Of a stretch of DNA of 43,377 bases, positions 13,090 to 34,599 are shown in pieces. Each line of letters opens with the position of its first letter. Positions within the stretch are counted from its first letter, which is position 1. The notes below the pieces were generated by a model. The model made no database searches, had not been told where the DNA came from, and saw only the letters and a program-made list of their open reading frames with translations. Source of the stretch: a virus. The translations under genes and the position numbers were made by a program. The stretch is from the IMG/VR virus record IMGVR_UViG_3300037140_000074, positions 1 through 43,377 of that record; one strand, 5' to 3'.

Positions 13090-13548
13090 ATGACAGACGA
13101 TCTATATCAACCAGTTCAAGGAGAGGTACTACCTCCAAGACAAATAGCCCAATTGCTGGTTTGTCGAATTGTTATTATCGTCACCGTGGCAACAATAGCA
13201 ATAGCAGTCATGTCTGTTTACTGCCCCAAAGACTCCAATAAAGATACAGTAACTATTTTAGTTGGCTTTGTGGGAGCCGCTATTGTAGGACTTCTTGGTT
13301 TAGCCAAATCCCAAGAAAATTCCTACCTGATTAAAATGGAAGGGGGTAAGAATCAGCAAATGCTACAAGACCATGCATGTTTAGTAAAAGATCAATTAAG
13401 CAGTTTGGCTAATGCAACGTATCGCATTGCGACTAAATCTGAAAATGCTGATACTGCAGCTGCTCTTAAAGAAGAAACTGAGCACACTGCAGCTACTCTT
13501 AAAGAAGAAACTGAGCACACTGCAGCTGCTCTTAAAGAAGTCAAATAA
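13090..13548 (+). CDS. Holin-like protein with two membrane helices and a repeated tail
   Basis: 152 residues. Two predicted membrane helices lie at about residues 23-43 and 54-72, joined by a short loop with Cys and Asp/Lys, followed by a long charged C-terminal tail. It sits directly before the endolysin and shares one base with it (TAATG), the usual holin place. The tail ends in 2.67 copies of an 11-residue unit, AALKEETEHTA. At 152 residues it is longer than most class II holins (about 65-95), because of this tail. The holin role is inferred from topology and context. Confidence 0.7.
   Translation: MTDDLYQPVQGEVLPPRQIAQLLVCRIVIIVTVATIAIAVMSVYCPKDSNKDTVTILVGFVGAAIVGLLGLAKSQENSYLIKMEGGKNQQMLQDHACLVKDQLSSLANATYRIATKSENADTAAALKEETEHTAATLKEETEHTAAALKEVK
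13453..13540 (+). repeat. 33-bp in-frame tandem repeat in the holin-like gene
   Basis: Units begin at 13453, 13486 and 13519. The second is full length and the third is cut after 22 bases. The copies differ by one base (GCTGCT against GCTACT), changing Ala to Thr. The unit encodes an 11-residue charged coiled-coil-like segment. Near-identity suggests recent duplication by slippage, and copy number is expected to vary between isolates. Confidence 0.9.
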
Positions 13549-22253: not shown

Positions 22254-22295
22254 TTGGTTATGTTGGTTATGTTGGTTATGTTGGTTATGTTGGTT
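22254..22295 (-). repeat. 9-bp tandem repeat before the DUF2815 gene
   Basis: Four full copies and a partial fifth of TTGGTTATG (plus strand) run from 22254 to 22295. They touch the stop codon of the DUF2800 gene and end about 15 bases before the DUF2815 ATG. On the transcribed strand the unit is CATAACCAA. The sequence is non-coding and low in structure. It might act as a translational spacer or binding array; slippage variation is likely. Confidence 0.9.
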
Positions 22296-26641: not shown

Positions 26642-28785
26642 AACAGATGCTTCCAAGCATCCATTTTCTGCCACATACCATCGCCAGAATTGCCTCTATT
26701 AAATTCAAATCCTAATTCTTTTAATACCTGATACGCACGTTTTCTGTGATGCGCTCCTACTTCTTTTGCTTGGAAGCCTAATGCTGCTAAAACTTCATTA
26801 GTACCAAATTCGTCAGGATGGGCTAAACACCAACCAGCTAATATATCTACCCACGGATCGGATTCTCGCCTGCTTGACTGTTCTGCGACTGCAAGTTTGA
26901 CAATTTCTGGATCTGTAATCCATGGTTTTTCGCCTTCTCGATAGCGATGACATGCTTCAGCGAAGTATTGATCTCGCATCTTTATTAATCTATCAATATC
27001 AAATCTTCCGGTAGCAACCGGCCAATATCGCCGGTTTTGAAAATCCCGTAAATATTCTCCTGACGCCGAAGGGTTAAGCGTTGCAATAAATACTGATTCT
27101 CTAGGCACCGATTCAGCAGTCCGAGCGTAGGAGGGACGGTATGTATCCACTGAAGTCGTAATAGTTTTTTTAAGCCAAGCAAACTCAGCCTTTGAAAATG
27201 TATTGTCAATTTCAGGTAGCTCAACAATCCATTTACCACGAAGAGCTTGATATGTGTCTTTATCATTTGGAATTAATTCCCCTGTTGAATACCAGTCACC
27301 GCCTAACGTTTCTACCCATGTACTTTTCTTCGTTCCCTGCTCAGATTCAAGAACTAATAAATAATCTTGCTTACAGCCAGGTTCAAATATTCGCTTAACT
27401 GCACTAATTAAAATACACCTGCCGGCATCTCTTGTGTACGGAGTATCCTTACAGCCAGTAGTATCAGGCAGTATTCTATCAAGCCGATTAAGCCCGTCCC
27501 ATTTAAGCCCATTTAAATAGTCTTTTACTGGATGATATGGCGTAGCTGCTACTCTGACAGCAGCTGCAATGCGTTCTATTCCTACCTCAAGCATGTATTC
27601 AGGTGTAGCTGATAACCAACCTTGAATATATTCATAATCGCCAGTAGACATGCCTTCAGTTTTGTTTATCTGATCTCGTCGCCAATCAGGCCTATTTTTA
27701 ATTTCCACTCTGTCAGCAAACTGATTATAAAAAATGCGTCCATGCCAATATTTAGAGTGACGCAAAATCCAAATTACATTTCCTTGTGTATTTGCCGCGC
27801 CTATCACTTTATTATTCTTGTCTAATTTTGGTGTGAGAATTTTTTGGAATAGAGTTTTTTTTACTTCTTCGTTTTGAAAACTATCTGAAGCAGTCACATT
27901 GTTCGATTGTTTTAGTACAGTTAATTCTGGCTTTTTAAATACTGCTTCTGGGCTGCTACTGCCAGGAGCATTTTTAGCGTAAGCATAAGCATTTTCAACA
28001 GTAGTCAGTAACTCTTTTTCAGGCAGTGGTGGTAAATTTCTTGGATTCCATTCATTAGCTAAATGCTGGTAAGCTACTTCTAATGGCAGATTTAAATCTC
28101 TTGCTCTGGCTGCAATTTTAAAAGCCGTAATGCCTCTTGTTCGGTCTGACTTTGGAGCCGCTGGTTCTTCACTTTGACAAATTTGCTTAAACTGATCTTC
28201 AGAATCTAGCGACCAATCATCAGCACCTGTTTTAACGGCGCTTGCTGCTTGTTCTAGCGTAGTTAATATGCTTAGTGGTAGTAATGCAGGCGCTCCGTCA
28301 TTTATAAGTACGTAATCGCCAACTACATGCCTGCCATCAGTCATAACTTGATCACGATGACAACCTGGGCCGACAATACAATGGTTTTCTGATCTAAATT
28401 CAATGCCTGGATATAGTTTCTGAGCTTTTCTAATTTTTATAGTAGGGTCTTTCTTATATCTTAAATGCCAGCCATTGCTCGGCGTTTTAACTGCTCTTGT
28501 CCCCGTCGGATATAGTGTCAGCCATTCTTTTAAAGGATCGCGTCCTGGTGGATAGTTTTTAGGATCACAATCTAAACAAAGATCATCTGCTTGTAAAGCT
28601 ATGCCATAACTGCCTTCTGGCTTGTAAACGCCTTTGCCCACTTTGTTCCAAGCCAAAAGTGCTGGCTCATTAGTATGGTGTTTCATAGGAAAATAGTGTT
28701 CTATTTCCTGCCAGCCGCTACTAATAGCGTTACAAGTATTGTCAGTTTTGTCAGTAGGTGGTATATTTGTACTTGCTTGATACAT
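26638..28785 (-). CDS. Bifunctional prim-pol / VapE-type replicative helicase
   Basis: 715 residues. The N-terminus is an archaeo-eukaryotic-type prim-pol domain: ADDLCLDCDPKN with Asp72 and Asp74, SNGWHLRY with His107, and GIEFRSENHCIVGPG. A middle linker with PriCT-like helices follows. The C-terminus is a VapE (PF05272-type) superfamily 3-like ATPase: WDGLNRLDRI, Walker A in LESEQGTKKST (479-489), Walker B in KWIVELPEID (518-527) and the later SVPRESVFIATLNP. Together these would start replication by making primers and unwinding. AAAGGATCAA is the ribosome site. Upstream lie a hairpin and the pentamer tract, a possible origin. Confidence 0.92.
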   Translation of the reverse strand: MYQASTNIPPTDKTDNTCNAISSGWQEIEHYFPMKHHTNEPALLAWNKVGKGVYKPEGSYGIALQADDLCLDCDPKNYPPGRDPLKEWLTLYPTGTRAVKTPSNGWHLRYKKDPTIKIRKAQKLYPGIEFRSENHCIVGPGCHRDQVMTDGRHVVGDYVLINDGAPALLPLSILTTLEQAASAVKTGADDWSLDSEDQFKQICQSEEPAAPKSDRTRGITAFKIAARARDLNLPLEVAYQHLANEWNPRNLPPLPEKELLTTVENAYAYAKNAPGSSSPEAVFKKPELTVLKQSNNVTASDSFQNEEVKKTLFQKILTPKLDKNNKVIGAANTQGNVIWILRHSKYWHGRIFYNQFADRVEIKNRPDWRRDQINKTEGMSTGDYEYIQGWLSATPEYMLEVGIERIAAAVRVAATPYHPVKDYLNGLKWDGLNRLDRILPDTTGCKDTPYTRDAGRCILISAVKRIFEPGCKQDYLLVLESEQGTKKSTWVETLGGDWYSTGELIPNDKDTYQALRGKWIVELPEIDNTFSKAEFAWLKKTITTSVDTYRPSYARTAESVPRESVFIATLNPSASGEYLRDFQNRRYWPVATGRFDIDRLIKMRDQYFAEACHRYREGEKPWITDPEIVKLAVAEQSSRRESDPWVDILAGWCLAHPDEFGTNEVLAALGFQAKEVGAHHRKRAYQVLKELGFEFNRGNSGDGMWQKMDAWKHLL

Positions 28786-28799
28786 TTGATCCTTTATGC

Positions 28800-28832
28800 A
28801 AAACGTCTCTCTGATCCGGGGGCGTTTTTCTT
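28800..28832 (+). terminator. Weak terminator-like hairpin
   Basis: AAAACGTC (28800-28807) pairs with GGCGTTTT (28821-28828), including one G-U pair, around a 13-base loop and followed by TCTTTT on the plus strand. On the minus strand it lies in the 5' leader of the prim-pol gene. No plus-strand gene ends here, so it may stop stray transcription, or it may be leader structure. Confidence 0.4.
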
Positions 28833-28842
28833 TTGCGGATTT

Positions 28843-28886
28843 ATAATTCTAGACTTCTTGATTAGAGAAGTCTAGAATTATTTTTT
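28843..28886 (+). terminator. Perfect 16-bp hairpin with T run, opposite to gene direction
   Basis: ATAATTCTAGACTTCT (28843-28858) and AGAAGTCTAGAATTAT (28866-28881) pair without mismatch around a 7-base loop. Six T residues begin with the last base of the stem on the plus strand. All annotated genes nearby read on the minus strand, where no T run follows. It adjoins the pentamer tract that starts at 28894. It could block plus-strand (antisense) transcription coming toward the tract, or be a DNA cruciform. Confidence 0.7.
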
Positions 28887-28893
28887 CCTTTTT

Positions 28894-29481
28894 GCCTGCT
28901 GTGATTCGCTGTGCTCAACTCCGCTTTGCTTCGCTTTGCTTCGCTTCGCCTGCTACGCTATGCTGAGCTTCGCTGAGCTTTGCTTGGCTACGCTATGCCT
29001 GCTGTGCTGCGCTTGGCTATGCTTCGCTGGGCTTTGCTTAGCTGTGCCTGCTGTGATTTGCTGCGCTCTACTGGACTAAACTGAGCCCCACTATGCCTGC
29101 TGTGCTTCGCTATGCTGGGCTACGCTCTGCCTGCTGCGCTTTGCTTTGCTTCGCTCTGCTTCGCTAGGCCTGCTGAGCTAGGCTCCGCTTCGCTGGGCTA
29201 GGCTACGCTGGGCTATGCTACGCTGGGCTACGCCTGCTGTGCTAGGCTTTGCTGTGCTTCGCTGTGCTTCGCTTCGCTACGCTGGGCTGTGCTTCGCTTC
29301 GCTTTGCCTGCTGTGCTGCGCCCTGCTGTGCTGGGCTGTGCTGGGCTTAGCTTCGCCTGCTGTGCTTTACAGGGCTTCGCCTGCTGTGCTGCGCTTGGCT
29401 CCGCTCGGCTCCGCTCGGCTTCGCTTTGCCTGCTATGCTGCGCTTCGCTCGGCTTCGCTCCGCTTTGCTTTGCCTGCTATG
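28894..29481. repeat. 588-bp degenerate pentamer (NNGCT) tract with GCCTGCT punctuation
   Basis: The whole gap between the prim-pol gene and the gene at 29484 is made of five-base units ending in GCT, with two variable bases (CG, TT, GG, AC, TG and so on). GCCTGCT words occur at 28894, 28948, 28997, 29046, 29095, 29129, 29168, 29232, 29306, 29355, 29379, 29428 and 29472. All twelve intervals are 4 modulo 5, and 49 occurs five times. The tract is visibly richer in G and C than its neighbours. Open frames through it are low-complexity artefacts. Possible roles are replication origin, packaging site or structured RNA; none is shown. Confidence 0.93.
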
Positions 29482-29483
29482 AA

Positions 29484-29996
29484 TTATTTATCCTCCCCTC
29501 CTTTAGAAGCGTAAGCTTTAATTACTTTATTTATCACTATAAATACAGGATTTAATTCACCAAGCATATAAAAACGGCTTTTAAATACGCCTAACTCCAT
29601 AAATGCTGTCTTTAGTAGCTCATCTCGTAGTTTTGCATCCTTCATCACATCTTCAATATCTCTGTAGCCCCCTCCACGACTACGATCTGAAAGAAGGCTG
29701 ACAAATTTACGAGTTGGTGGATTAATACATACAGTTAGGTTACTCAGATCCTTTTTGACTGGCATAACAATTACTATTTGAATTAATCGCTGCGCCTGTA
29801 ATAAACGATACTTTTCTCCCGCTTCTGAATCATCCCAAATAAACTCGTAATGCAAAGCGCTTTTAACATCCCTAGCAGCATCTAATACTTGCTGTGATTT
29901 TAAAAGGCTACGCTTAGTTTTAAGCTTTCGAGCAAGCTCCGTAAGTTCATCATAAATAATTTGTTCGCGCGTTATTTCAATATTTGTCTGACTCAT
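29484..29996 (-). CDS. Conserved phage protein of unknown function
   Basis: 170 residues. HYEFIWDDSEAGEKYRLLQAQRLIQIV, then a middle with CINPPTRKFVSLLSDRSRGGGYRDIEDVM and LRDELLKTAFMELGVFKSRFYML, match a widespread phage hypothetical family as I remember it. It is usually encoded next to the family of the upstream gene (29996-30661), as here. The product is soluble, mixed alpha/beta. Its start shares one base with the upstream stop (TAATG). The stop lies two bases from the pentamer tract. Confidence 0.7.
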   Translation of the reverse strand: MSQTNIEITREQIIYDELTELARKLKTKRSLLKSQQVLDAARDVKSALHYEFIWDDSEAGEKYRLLQAQRLIQIVIVMPVKKDLSNLTVCINPPTRKFVSLLSDRSRGGGYRDIEDVMKDAKLRDELLKTAFMELGVFKSRFYMLGELNPVFIVINKVIKAYASKGGEDK

Positions 29997-30661
29997 TATT
30001 TTGCACCTACTTTTTTAGCGTTAGCTATACCAAATGTTCCCCAGCCCATACCTACACTACTCTTAGAAAATGGTCTTCCACAACCAACACCAACTTGTTG
30101 GCCAGCTCTAGCCATTAAATTAAATGCTGATTCATGAGACATCATATCCGCGTCATAACTCACTTTAACTTGTGCTGTCCATTCTCTCCACATAGCGCGA
30201 GTTACGATATTCGTTGTTCCCATACCAATACGGACATCAGATTGAAGCATTTCAGAACCATTTTTACTGTAAATGCGCACTAATGGTGTCCCATCTTCTT
30301 TATCAAACCCATCAGGATCAACAAATAGAGCCATTTTAAATTTAGTCATTTCTTCCCCTACCGCACTAGCTGCTCGTACCATTGCAGATTTAAAAGCGGT
30401 ACATGGAATACCAACCCAACCATCATCGCTGATATGCTGAGAATCCAGGTATTCTTGATCGTAATCTCTGACTTTCCTACTAGCTTTTTTGCCTTTTTTA
30501 TCTGCTTTTTCAGTACTCATATCAAGTAGCATTGTCTGTTTAGCCTTTTCACTAAATTTACATTGTACGTATGGTGCTGTTCCTTCAATATTTATTTGTA
30601 CTTCTTGAATGTTCGGCGCGGAAATATTAACCATGCCTGTTTCTTTTTTACCAAATGCCAT
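29996..30661 (-). CDS. Conserved early phage protein
   Basis: 221 residues. Features are QINIEGTAPYVQCKFSEKA near the start, a Lys-rich loop, GWVGIPCTAFKSAMVRAAS in the middle, VRIYSKNGSEMLQSDVRIGM, and a Gly-rich end (GRPFSKSSVGMGWGTFGIA). I recognise this as a phage protein family commonly found in early operons but know no function for it. The Gly-rich loops recall RAMP-type folds, which is speculation. The ribosome site is AGAGGATCAA, as in the DUF2800 gene. Confidence 0.7.
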   Translation of the reverse strand: MAFGKKETGMVNISAPNIQEVQINIEGTAPYVQCKFSEKAKQTMLLDMSTEKADKKGKKASRKVRDYDQEYLDSQHISDDGWVGIPCTAFKSAMVRAASAVGEEMTKFKMALFVDPDGFDKEDGTPLVRIYSKNGSEMLQSDVRIGMGTTNIVTRAMWREWTAQVKVSYDADMMSHESAFNLMARAGQQVGVGCGRPFSKSSVGMGWGTFGIANAKKVGAK

Positions 30662-30680: not shown

Positions 30681-30771
30681 CCAACTAACTTTTAGTTGGG
30701 TATTCAAGGCAGCGCTGGGCTACGCTTCGCTGCGCCCCGCTTAGATATGATAAGCCTGCCTTGAATACCAA
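30681..30771. repeat. Two competing hairpins enclosing a pentamer island
   Basis: A long stem pairs 30696-30712 (TTGG, bulged G, TATTCAAGGCAG) with 30756-30771 (CTGCCTTGAATACCAA). Its 43-base loop is largely the same NNGCT pentamer sequence as the 28.9-29.5 kb tract (about 30711-30741). A second hairpin, CCAACTAA (30681-30688) with TTAGTTGG (30692-30699), shares four bases with the long stem, so only one can form fully. The structure lies in the leader of the 30661 gene. It could regulate that gene or be a small insertion element. Confidence 0.8.
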
Positions 30772-30776
30772 ACTAT

Positions 30777-31010
30777 TTACAATAATTCCTGCCATCTTTT
30801 AGCTTTCGCTTTAGTATTTCGTGGTCTGCCTTTTACCCAGTGTTTATTAAAATCGTGGCTGTTAACTATCAGCATTGTTTCAATAAATGGCAATAATCGT
30901 TTTCTGTTATCAATTCGGCCAACAGGCAAAATGCCACGCGCAACTAATTTGCGAATGTTGTCGATTGATAATCCTGTCCTTTCTGCTACTTCTTTAAGTG
31001 TTAGTTCCAT
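30777..31010 (-). CDS. Excisionase/MerR-like HTH regulator
   Basis: 77 residues. ELTLKEVAERTGLSIDNIRKLVARGILPVGRI is a winged helix-turn-helix of the MerR/excisionase type, and the end is basic (KGRPRNTKAKAKRWQELL), fitting minor-groove DNA binding. With no integrase in the genome it is more likely a transcription regulator of the early region than an excisionase. It overlaps the zinc-ribbon gene by 17 bases. Confidence 0.75.
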   Translation of the reverse strand: MELTLKEVAERTGLSIDNIRKLVARGILPVGRIDNRKRLLPFIETMLIVNSHDFNKHWVKGRPRNTKAKAKRWQELL

Positions 31011-33505: not shown

Positions 33506-33529
33506 TTGTTTGACCCTCTTTGCTTGTTA

Positions 33530-33558
33530 ATTATACCTTTAATCTGTCTAATTGTCTA
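33530..33558 (-). promoter_or_regulatory. Early promoter P1 with operator-like TGTCTAGGACA
   Basis: Reading the minus strand, TAGACA (33558-33553), a 17-base spacer and a perfect TATAAT (33535-33530) form a sigma70 promoter 25 bases above the gene at 33505. The near-palindrome TGTCTAGGACA (plus 33553-33563) overlaps the -35 exactly, and a TAGACAGATTAAA motif fills part of the spacer. P2 has the same arrangement, which points to joint regulation. Confidence 0.85.
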
Positions 33559-33582
33559 GGACAAGTCATTTTTTTAATCTGT

Positions 33583-33681
33583 CTACTCACTTTCATCTTG
33601 ATTAGTGTTGTCAGTATCGTTTGTGTGTGTAGCCAAGTAGTCAATTCTCATTAGATACGCTTCATATTCGTTGTCATTCAT
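33583..33681 (-). CDS. 32-residue acidic peptide, first early gene
   Basis: AAGGAGG eight bases before an ATG at 33681 opens a 33-codon frame ending at 33583. The product starts MNDNEYEAYLMRIDYLATHT and is strongly acidic and Asn/Asp-rich (TNDTDNTNQDESE). It sits just downstream of promoter P2. The ribosome site is among the best in the genome. It may mimic DNA or bind a host enzyme, as small acidic early phage proteins sometimes do, but this is inference. Confidence 0.7.
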   Translation of the reverse strand: MNDNEYEAYLMRIDYLATHTNDTDNTNQDESE

Positions 33682-33716
33682 GTTGATAACCTCCTTTTTA
33701 ATCTGTCTACTCTCTT

Positions 33717-33745
33717 ATTTTAGCACTTTAAGGTCAATCTGTCTA
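33717..33745 (-). promoter_or_regulatory. Early promoter P2 with operator-like TGTCTAGGACA
   Basis: On the minus strand TAGACA (33745-33740), a 17-base spacer and TAAAAT (33722-33717) precede the 32-residue acidic gene. TGTCTAGGACA at plus 33740-33750 overlaps the -35, the same placement as at P1. The first transcript of infection probably starts near 33710. Confidence 0.8.
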
Positions 33746-33770
33746 GGACATTTGATTAAAACTGATAAAT

Positions 33771-33909
33771 GGCACGGCTCGGAATAGTGATAGGCTGCCT
33801 TAGCTGCCTTAGATTAGTTAAAACAGAATAGTTAAAGGACAAATAAATATTTTCTGTACGCCTAAGATGGCTAATTTGAGTGTCTGAGGCATTTTAGGCA
33901 GCCCGTGCC
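33771..33909. ncRNA. Possible structured RNA or long hairpin
   Basis: GGCACG (33771-33776) pairs with CGTGCC (33904-33909), and GGCTGCCT (33793-33800) pairs with AGGCAGCC (33896-33903). The right-hand partners are directly adjacent, so the two stems stack with a one-sided 16-base bulge. A second copy of GCTGCCTTAG follows the first and could swap into the stem. The enclosed 95 bases are AT-rich. Strand and expression are unknown. Confidence 0.4.
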
Positions 33910-34018
33910 TTTCGCTGGTGTTTTGGCAAAGTGAAATAATCGCGTCTAAGCAAACCAGGCCCGACAGGCAGGCATTTTGCGTGATACCACTTTCTTAATA
34001 ATTGCATAACAATTGCCT

Positions 34019-34052
34019 GACAGTTTACCGGCAGCTCCGCTGATAAACTGTC
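34019..34052. other. Hairpin in control region
   Basis: GACAGTTTA (34019-34027) and TAAACTGTC (34044-34052) are perfect inverted repeats. CAGC and GCTG pair inside around tcc. TGTCTAG follows immediately, recalling half of the operator-like word at P1 and P2. There is no T run, so a terminator is unlikely. Confidence 0.6.
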
Positions 34053-34131
34053 TAGTAGGCGTAGTTAACAAGACCTTGACATTGTGTAACAGTGTAATTA
34101 AGGTAAAAACTAAACGTTAGGCATAAAACAG

Positions 34132-34160
34132 AGGCGGCTAGAAGGTCATTCTAGCCGCCT
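34132..34160. other. Perfect 12-bp GC-rich hairpin in control region
   Basis: AGGCGGCTAGAA (34132-34143) and TTCTAGCCGCCT (34149-34160) pair perfectly around ggtca. On the minus strand CTGTTTTATG follows, giving a weak terminator. It may insulate the early and late arms, or form a cruciform at an origin. Confidence 0.7.
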
Positions 34161-34537
34161 GAAATATGTTTGGCTGGTAATCCTACCCTAATTAGCTAAC
34201 GCGAGCTTGCAGCGTACACATAGCTTTTGTCAAGCGGCTGTCTTATCATGTATTAGCAACGTATGACATCTAAGCGTACTAATCTGTCCTTGTTATCTAA
34301 TCTCTTTACATCTATACTCTTTGCATATACCATGTCAAGCTCTTGTTATCTTGTTGCCAGGCGGGTAAAAGCATTCTTTTACCTTTGACGTACACGACCC
34401 ACCAATAGGCAGCGCCTGACTTACAAGCCCATATACACAAACTAAAAATAAAAATTTTATCCTGTACAAATTAATTACTTCTTGACAATAAAAAATTCTA
34501 TACCAGACATTTTACAATGGTGGACAGATTAGAATTA

Positions 34538-34567
34538 TTGACACAACCCGCACCAACTCGATAGACT
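34538..34567 (+). promoter_or_regulatory. Plus-strand promoter for the packaging/structural arm
   Basis: TTGACA (34538-34543), an 18-base spacer and TAGACT (34562-34567) lie 33 bases before the gene at 34600. A small inverted repeat AGACT/AGTCT (34563-34577) covers the start region. A GGACAGATTAGA word sits just upstream, the complement of the motif at the early promoters. The -10 is only a partial match, so an activator may be needed. Confidence 0.55.
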
Positions 34568-34599
34568 CATATTAGTCTCACACCTTCAGGAGAAACAAA

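What the first reader, a model, noticed from the sequence alone, without database searches (positions are those of the whole stretch)
30681..30771. A second pentamer island is held in the loop of a long hairpin
The NNGCT pattern recurs at about 30711-30741, exactly within a 43-base loop closed by a 16-bp stem (one bulged G). A competing 8-bp hairpin overlaps one arm. Two separate loci with the same unusual grammar argue that it is a dispersed element, possibly mobile or bound by one factor, not local slippage. Inverted-repeat borders recall miniature elements, although no target duplication is evident.
Basis: partly seen in the sequence, partly recalled or inferred. Interest (0 to 1): 0.7.

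Follow-up and report, generated by a model that had tools for sequence, protein, structure and literature searches.

The report
Stem-closed guide RNA beside phage VIPR
The odd five-letter repeats held in a hairpin are most likely a guide-RNA segment of a phage-encoded VIPR system, a recently described relative of CRISPR that phages use to switch off rival viruses; this is a new example, with one unusual hairpin arrangement, of something already reported.

Summary
In detail: a stem with 20-nt arms (one mismatch, 43-nt loop), the only one of its kind in the window, encloses a tract of pentamers. On the coding (minus) strand the grammar is AGC/GGC-NN. The tract fills the gap just 5' of a gene whose product models as a Csm3/Cas7-type RAMP protein and aligns with Vipr of phage SUSP1. 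A second conserved gene and a 585-bp array of the same pentamers follow. Relatives carry the same layout. In a scan of IMG/VR for (GCTNN)8, 38 of 119 hits carried a Vipr homologue, the array being on the same strand in 37 and within 1 kb in 36. This is VIPR (preprint PMC13142463): Vipr plus vrRNAs of GGY/NN pentamers that read DNA with a 1-nt skip. The window array has 12 guide-like blocks, all 5n+4 nt long. The island in the finding is best read as an upstream vrRNA tract closed by its own stem; the mobile-element reading is not supported. No target was found for any of four guides tested. The stem closure has one parallel (L140), and its role is unproved.

The parts
30756..30775 (-). 5' arm of the stem on the coding (minus) strand: TAGTTTGGTATTCAAGGCAG
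   Evidence: the repeat finder; shuffles
30714..30760 (-). Upstream pentamer (vrRNA-like) tract: GGCAGGC TT ATC AT ATC TA AGC GG GGC GC AGC GA AGC GT AGC CC AGC; six perfect units at 30714-30741
30693..30712 (-). 3' arm of the stem: CTGCCTTGAATACCCAACTA
   Evidence: the repeat finder; fold
30681..30699 (-). Competing 8-bp hairpin overlapping the 3' arm, just upstream of the vipr ribosome-binding region
   Evidence: sequence; fold
29996..30661 (-). vipr: RAMP (Csm3/Cas7-fold) protein, phrog_4652
   Evidence: AlphaFold2 model; Foldseek; VIA-align Z 11; hhalign to SUSP1 Vipr; PHROG
29484..29996 (-). vap: accessory protein, phrog_15946; homologues found in 29 loci, all of which also carry vipr
   Evidence: structure (no clear PDB match)
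28894..29478 (-). Downstream array: 12 blocks of GGC-NN-(AGC-NN)n-AGC-A, each 5n+4 nt, bounded by AGCAGGC delimiters
28843..28881 (.). 17-bp hairpin at the far end of the array; terminator-like (T run) only on the + strand
30777..31010 (-). Small MerR/excisionase-like HTH gene that ends one base before the stem; neighbour, probably not part of the system

Best explanation
The region is a VIPR locus of an uncultivated tailed phage, read on the minus strand: stem-closed upstream guide tract, vipr, vap, then an array of 12 guide-like blocks. The finding is the upstream tract. Proposed working: the leader RNA is made with the operon; the 20-nt arms pair and present the pentamers as one unit; Vipr subunits bind the constant RGC triplets; the variable NN pairs read a DNA target with one base skipped per step and repress it. 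Shown here by computation: the stem, the tract, the RAMP fold, homology to SUSP1 Vipr, shared locus layout, and same-strand linkage of arrays to vipr across many viruses. Inferred from the preprint: RNA production, Vipr binding, the 1-nt-skip code and repression. Inferred by me, with weak support: that the stem closes and protects a functional upstream vrRNA (about 0.6 given VIPR).
For: Vipr fold: AlphaFold2 pLDDT 77.5, pTM 0.75; the top 50 PDB matches are CRISPR effector complexes, most often Csm3-like subunits, best E 4e-6, Z 11. Homology to SUSP1 Vipr: hhalign probability 99.4, E 1e-21 with a 10-member profile that includes distant members, and E 4e-7 over 46 residues near the C-terminus with a close 4-member profile. 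Same layout as SUSP1, where I read GGY-NN tracts on both sides of the gene pair; the preprint reports one upstream and three downstream vrRNAs (PMC13142463). Conserved synteny at 53% Vipr identity with a GGC-NN array in a 67% GC phage and GGC-NN arrays around the same genes in cyanophage Cy-LDV1. Linkage: 38 of 119 array hits hold vipr, 37 on the same strand, 36 within 1 kb (some hits are near-duplicates). Delimiters [AG]GCAGGC are spaced 5n+4 in 94 of 108 gaps over 19 loci (my tally). NN pairs of 188 tracts look most like codon positions 1-2 (126, against 48 and 14; no permutation of 200 as good), as the 1-nt skip at the wobble base predicts.
Against: No target: exact 1-nt-skip patterns of four window guides found nothing in IMG/VR and no self-target stands out. 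Tests on guides of two relatives were at chance level. In the window alone the codon-like NN signal is explained by base composition (p = 0.42). The upstream tract has only six perfect units and variant ATC triplets, and close relatives lack it, so it could be decayed. The core is AGC, not the GGY of the published main text. The supplement of the preprint could not be read.
Confidence: 0.88

Rival explanations
1. The stem-loop is a regulatory leader, not a guide: free Vipr binds the pentamers in its own 5' leader, shifting the balance between the long stem and the 8-bp hairpin next to the ribosome-binding site, so that Vipr limits its own synthesis when guides run short.
For: Position directly 5' of vipr; two nearly equal-energy, mutually exclusive structures; the tract is short and carries variant units; a second stem-closed tract also lies just 5' of vipr in L140.
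Against: No conservation of the stem or hairpin in close relatives; SUSP1 makes a real guide from its upstream position (PMC13142463).
Confidence: 0.2
2. The upstream tract is a decaying or recently duplicated piece of the downstream array without a present function.
For: ATC variant units; absent from nearest relatives; tracts vary freely in number and position between loci.
Against: ATC also occurs in two blocks of the main array; enclosing 20-nt arms with one mismatch would not be expected in a remnant.
Confidence: 0.2
3. A mobile or miniature inverted-repeat element inserted between two genes.
For: Inverted arms around a defined core; close fit to an intergenic gap.
Confidence: 0.03
4. Coding low-complexity sequence or replication slippage.
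For: Frames through the array are partly open on the + strand.
Against: Period 5 is not a codon multiple; variable NN with constant triplets and a 5n+4 punctuation occur across loci of very different GC content.
Confidence: 0.01

Closest known systems
VIPR of Escherichia phage SUSP1 (type II VIPR; PMC13142463; KT454805 about 27.5-29.5 kb)
   Same: RAMP protein gene plus accessory gene, one tract upstream and further tracts downstream on the same strand, constant triplet alternating with variable NN
   Different: SUSP1 uses GGY with separate tracts carrying hairpins and tails; the window uses mostly AGC, a continuous array cut into 5n+4 blocks, a vap not matched to that of SUSP1, and a stem that closes the upstream tract
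VIPR staggered arrays with overlapping vrRNAs (mentioned in PMC13142463, fig. S18)
   Same: Possibly the same thing as the register-shifted contiguous blocks seen here
Class 1 CRISPR (Csm/Cmr, Cas7 backbone)
   Same: RAMP fold and the expected polymerisation on a guide RNA
   Different: No CRISPR repeats and no other cas genes seen among the window proteins searched; period 5 instead of 6
TIGR-Tas
   Same: Phage-encoded array with non-CRISPR guides
   Different: Tas carries a Nop-related domain and longer guides (own knowledge); here the effector is a RAMP

Membership tests
VIPR | Vipr: a small RAMP protein with G-rich loop | tested here: met
   Csm3/Cas7 fold, Z 11; invariant G, R and G residues in the C-terminal loop region; profile match to SUSP1 Vipr
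VIPR | Tandem pentamers with a constant triplet and hypervariable NN next to vipr | tested here: met
   12 blocks plus the upstream tract, triplet AGC/GGC; linkage in dozens of loci. Published main-text motif is GGY or 'a related consensus'
VIPR | Accessory gene (vap) beside vipr | tested here: met
   phrog_15946 protein, homologues in 29 loci, always with vipr; not matched to a published vap number
VIPR | Small RNAs made from the tracts and bound by Vipr | not testable with these tools
   No expression data for this virus
VIPR | Target match by the 1-nt-skip rule | tested here: inconclusive
   No exact targets in IMG/VR for four guides; codon-position signal in pooled loci, composition only in the window
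VIPR | Structured 3' tail after the repeat tract | tested here: inconclusive
   The 3' arm pairs with the 5' arm; no alignment of tails was possible without close relatives
Miniature inverted-repeat element | Same arms at several places | tested here: not met
CRISPR-Cas | CRISPR repeats or Cas1/Cas10/other cas genes | tested here: inconclusive
   None seen in the proteins searched; not every ORF was searched

The most novel reading that the evidence does not exclude
A caged or self-regulating VIPR guide: the leader of the vipr gene carries a single guide closed in a long stem that competes with a second hairpin, so the same RNA acts as a guide and as a sensor that sets Vipr level. The stem-closed leader tract in a distant VIPR (L140) would be a parallel case.
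Probability: 0.2. Interest if true: 0.65.

Novelty: new member of a known kind. Interest (0 to 1): 0.5.

Why it matters
It places a blind sequence observation inside VIPR, an RNA-guided system proposed to predate CRISPR and reported only in 2026. It adds a member with an AGC core, a clade-wide 5n+4 punctuation of its arrays, and a stem-closed guide in the leader of the effector gene. These features give testable questions about how vrRNAs are cut out of continuous arrays and how Vipr levels are set.

Tried and rejected
Rfam gave no match to the window. blastn of the region against phage records gave no match. Target searches: four window guides in IMG/VR, none found; guides against the window itself, no standout match under the 1-nt skip; a Bradyrhizobium prophage guide in 265 genomes, 3 hits against 2 control hits with 2 mismatches, not significant; a mycobacteriophage guide in IMG/VR, 1 hit, chance level. 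The codon-position test on the window alone was not significant against permutation. Fold of vap: only weak MarR-like PDB matches, E above 1, not used; three viral matches without a named function. Mobile-element reading rejected. The PADLOC mad1 match is to the neighbouring HTH gene over 41 residues and was not taken as a defence system.

Full report
What is there. The window is a whole IMG/VR virus record of 43,377 bases with a tailed-phage gene set: terminase, head-tail connector, tail proteins, DNA polymerase, VapE-like primase-helicase. The island of the finding lies between two minus-strand genes, an HTH gene that ends at 30777 and a 221-aa gene that starts at 30661. Its 20-nt arms (30693-30712, 30756-30775) hold a 43-nt loop. 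The loop carries six perfect [AG]GC-NN units (30714-30741). No other run of four or more exists outside the large array, and 200 shuffles of the rest of the window reached at most 4. Twenty shuffled windows gave no comparable inverted repeat. The RNA fold is 5.2 standard deviations below shuffles. The long stem and the 8-bp competitor are nearly equal in energy.

The correct strand of the repeat. The genes here run on the minus strand. On that strand the repeat is a constant triplet, AGC or GGC, followed by two variable bases. The downstream array (28894-29478) splits into 12 blocks, each GGC-NN-(AGC-NN)n-AGC-A, so every block is 5n+4 nt long, and the blocks meet at AGCAGGC. The upstream tract begins with the same kind of delimiter, GGCAGGC, then TT ATC AT ATC TA AGC GG GGC GC AGC GA AGC GT AGC CC AGC. 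The ATC triplet also occurs in two blocks of the main array, so it is a tolerated variant and not by itself a sign of decay.

What it belongs to. A search with the 221-aa protein found two viral relatives at 53% identity. At the same place, after the same second gene, their genome (67% GC) carries a period-5 array with GGC-NN units and the delimiter GGCAGGC. Of these, 38 hold a homologue of the 221-aa protein in the DNA fetched. In 37 the array is on the same strand as that gene, and in 36 it is within 1 kb. Some of these hits are near-duplicates. The remaining 81 were not classified; many have short flanks.

The protein. AlphaFold2 on a 10-sequence alignment gives pLDDT 77.5 and pTM 0.75. The 50 best PDB matches are CRISPR effector complexes, led by Csm3-like chains, with Z about 11. 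A literature search then found VIPR (PMC13142463): a RAMP protein, Vipr, with vrRNAs of GGY/NN pentamers that bind DNA with a 1-nt skip and repress it. I fetched its type example, phage SUSP1. The two genes at 28031-29061 with GGY-NN tracts on both sides fit its description; that these are its vipr and vap is my reading. The window protein aligns with this SUSP1 protein by hhalign, E 1e-21 with the broad profile. That profile includes distant members that may resemble SUSP1; with only close members the match is E 4e-7 over 46 residues.

The family in this clade. Vipr homologues were found in 19 bacterial genome loci and in phages of Mycobacterium, Gordonia and a cyanobacterium. In all, 62 held loci (the window included) have a Vipr homologue and most have tracts up- or downstream. 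The second gene, phrog_15946, has homologues in 29 loci, all with vipr. The 5n+4 spacing of [AG]GCAGGC holds in 94 of 108 gaps over 19 loci, with one duplicate locus left out (my tally). The preprint mentions staggered arrays with overlapping vrRNAs; this may be the same thing, but the supplement could not be read.

Does the code hold here. The rule predicts that NN letters copy codon positions 1 and 2 of target genes. Over 188 tracts in 50 loci, positions 1-2 fit best in 126 tracts against 48 and 14 for the other phases, and no permutation of 200 did as well. The permutation also mixes letters between tracts, so part of the signal may be tract-level composition. In the window alone, composition explains the fit (p = 0.42). 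Exact target searches of IMG/VR with four window guides, including the upstream one, found nothing. The host is unknown, so absence of a target is weak evidence.

The special feature. Stem closure of an upstream tract is not general. The nearest relatives have no upstream tract. A systematic look at 145 tract clusters found one close parallel, L140, where arms of 17 nt with mismatches enclose the tract 5' of vipr (fold). In several AGC-type loci neighbouring tracts are separated by palindromes, which gives flanking complementarity of another kind. I therefore commit to a functional upstream vrRNA closed by a stem as most likely (about 0.6 given VIPR), with leader regulation and remnant as rivals.

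Verdict. VIPR membership is strong on protein fold, homology, layout and repeat grammar; RNA production, binding and repression are inferred from the preprint. The finding is real, the mobile-element idea is not supported, and the kind of system is already reported.

Noticed in passing
L150 7150-7690, L152 4603-4827 and 5409-5582, many loci: Pentamer arrays of this Vipr clade are cut into blocks of 5n+4 nt by [AG]GCAGGC across phages and bacterial genomes of very different GC content.
   Followed up: partly
window 28843-28881: A 17-bp hairpin with a T run on the + strand stands at the far end of the array, where the genes run on the minus strand; its role is unclear.
   Followed up: no
L153 (Mycobacterium phage ByChance), about 2155-2350: GGC-NN tracts run up to and into the annotated 5' part of gene 40; the annotated start is probably too early.
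   Followed up: no
window 22254-22295: Perfect 9-nt tandem repeat TTGGTTATG, 4.7 copies, between two minus-strand genes.
   Followed up: no
window 13453-13540: 33-nt tandem repeat, 2.7 copies, 96% matches, inside an open reading frame.
   Followed up: no
window 33506-34599: About 1.1 kb without an open reading frame of 100 codons or more between divergent gene blocks; possible control region.
   Followed up: no
L035, L047, L053, L072, L083, L131: AGC-NN tracts separated by regularly spaced palindromic spacers upstream of vipr, about 110 nt apart.
   Followed up: partly
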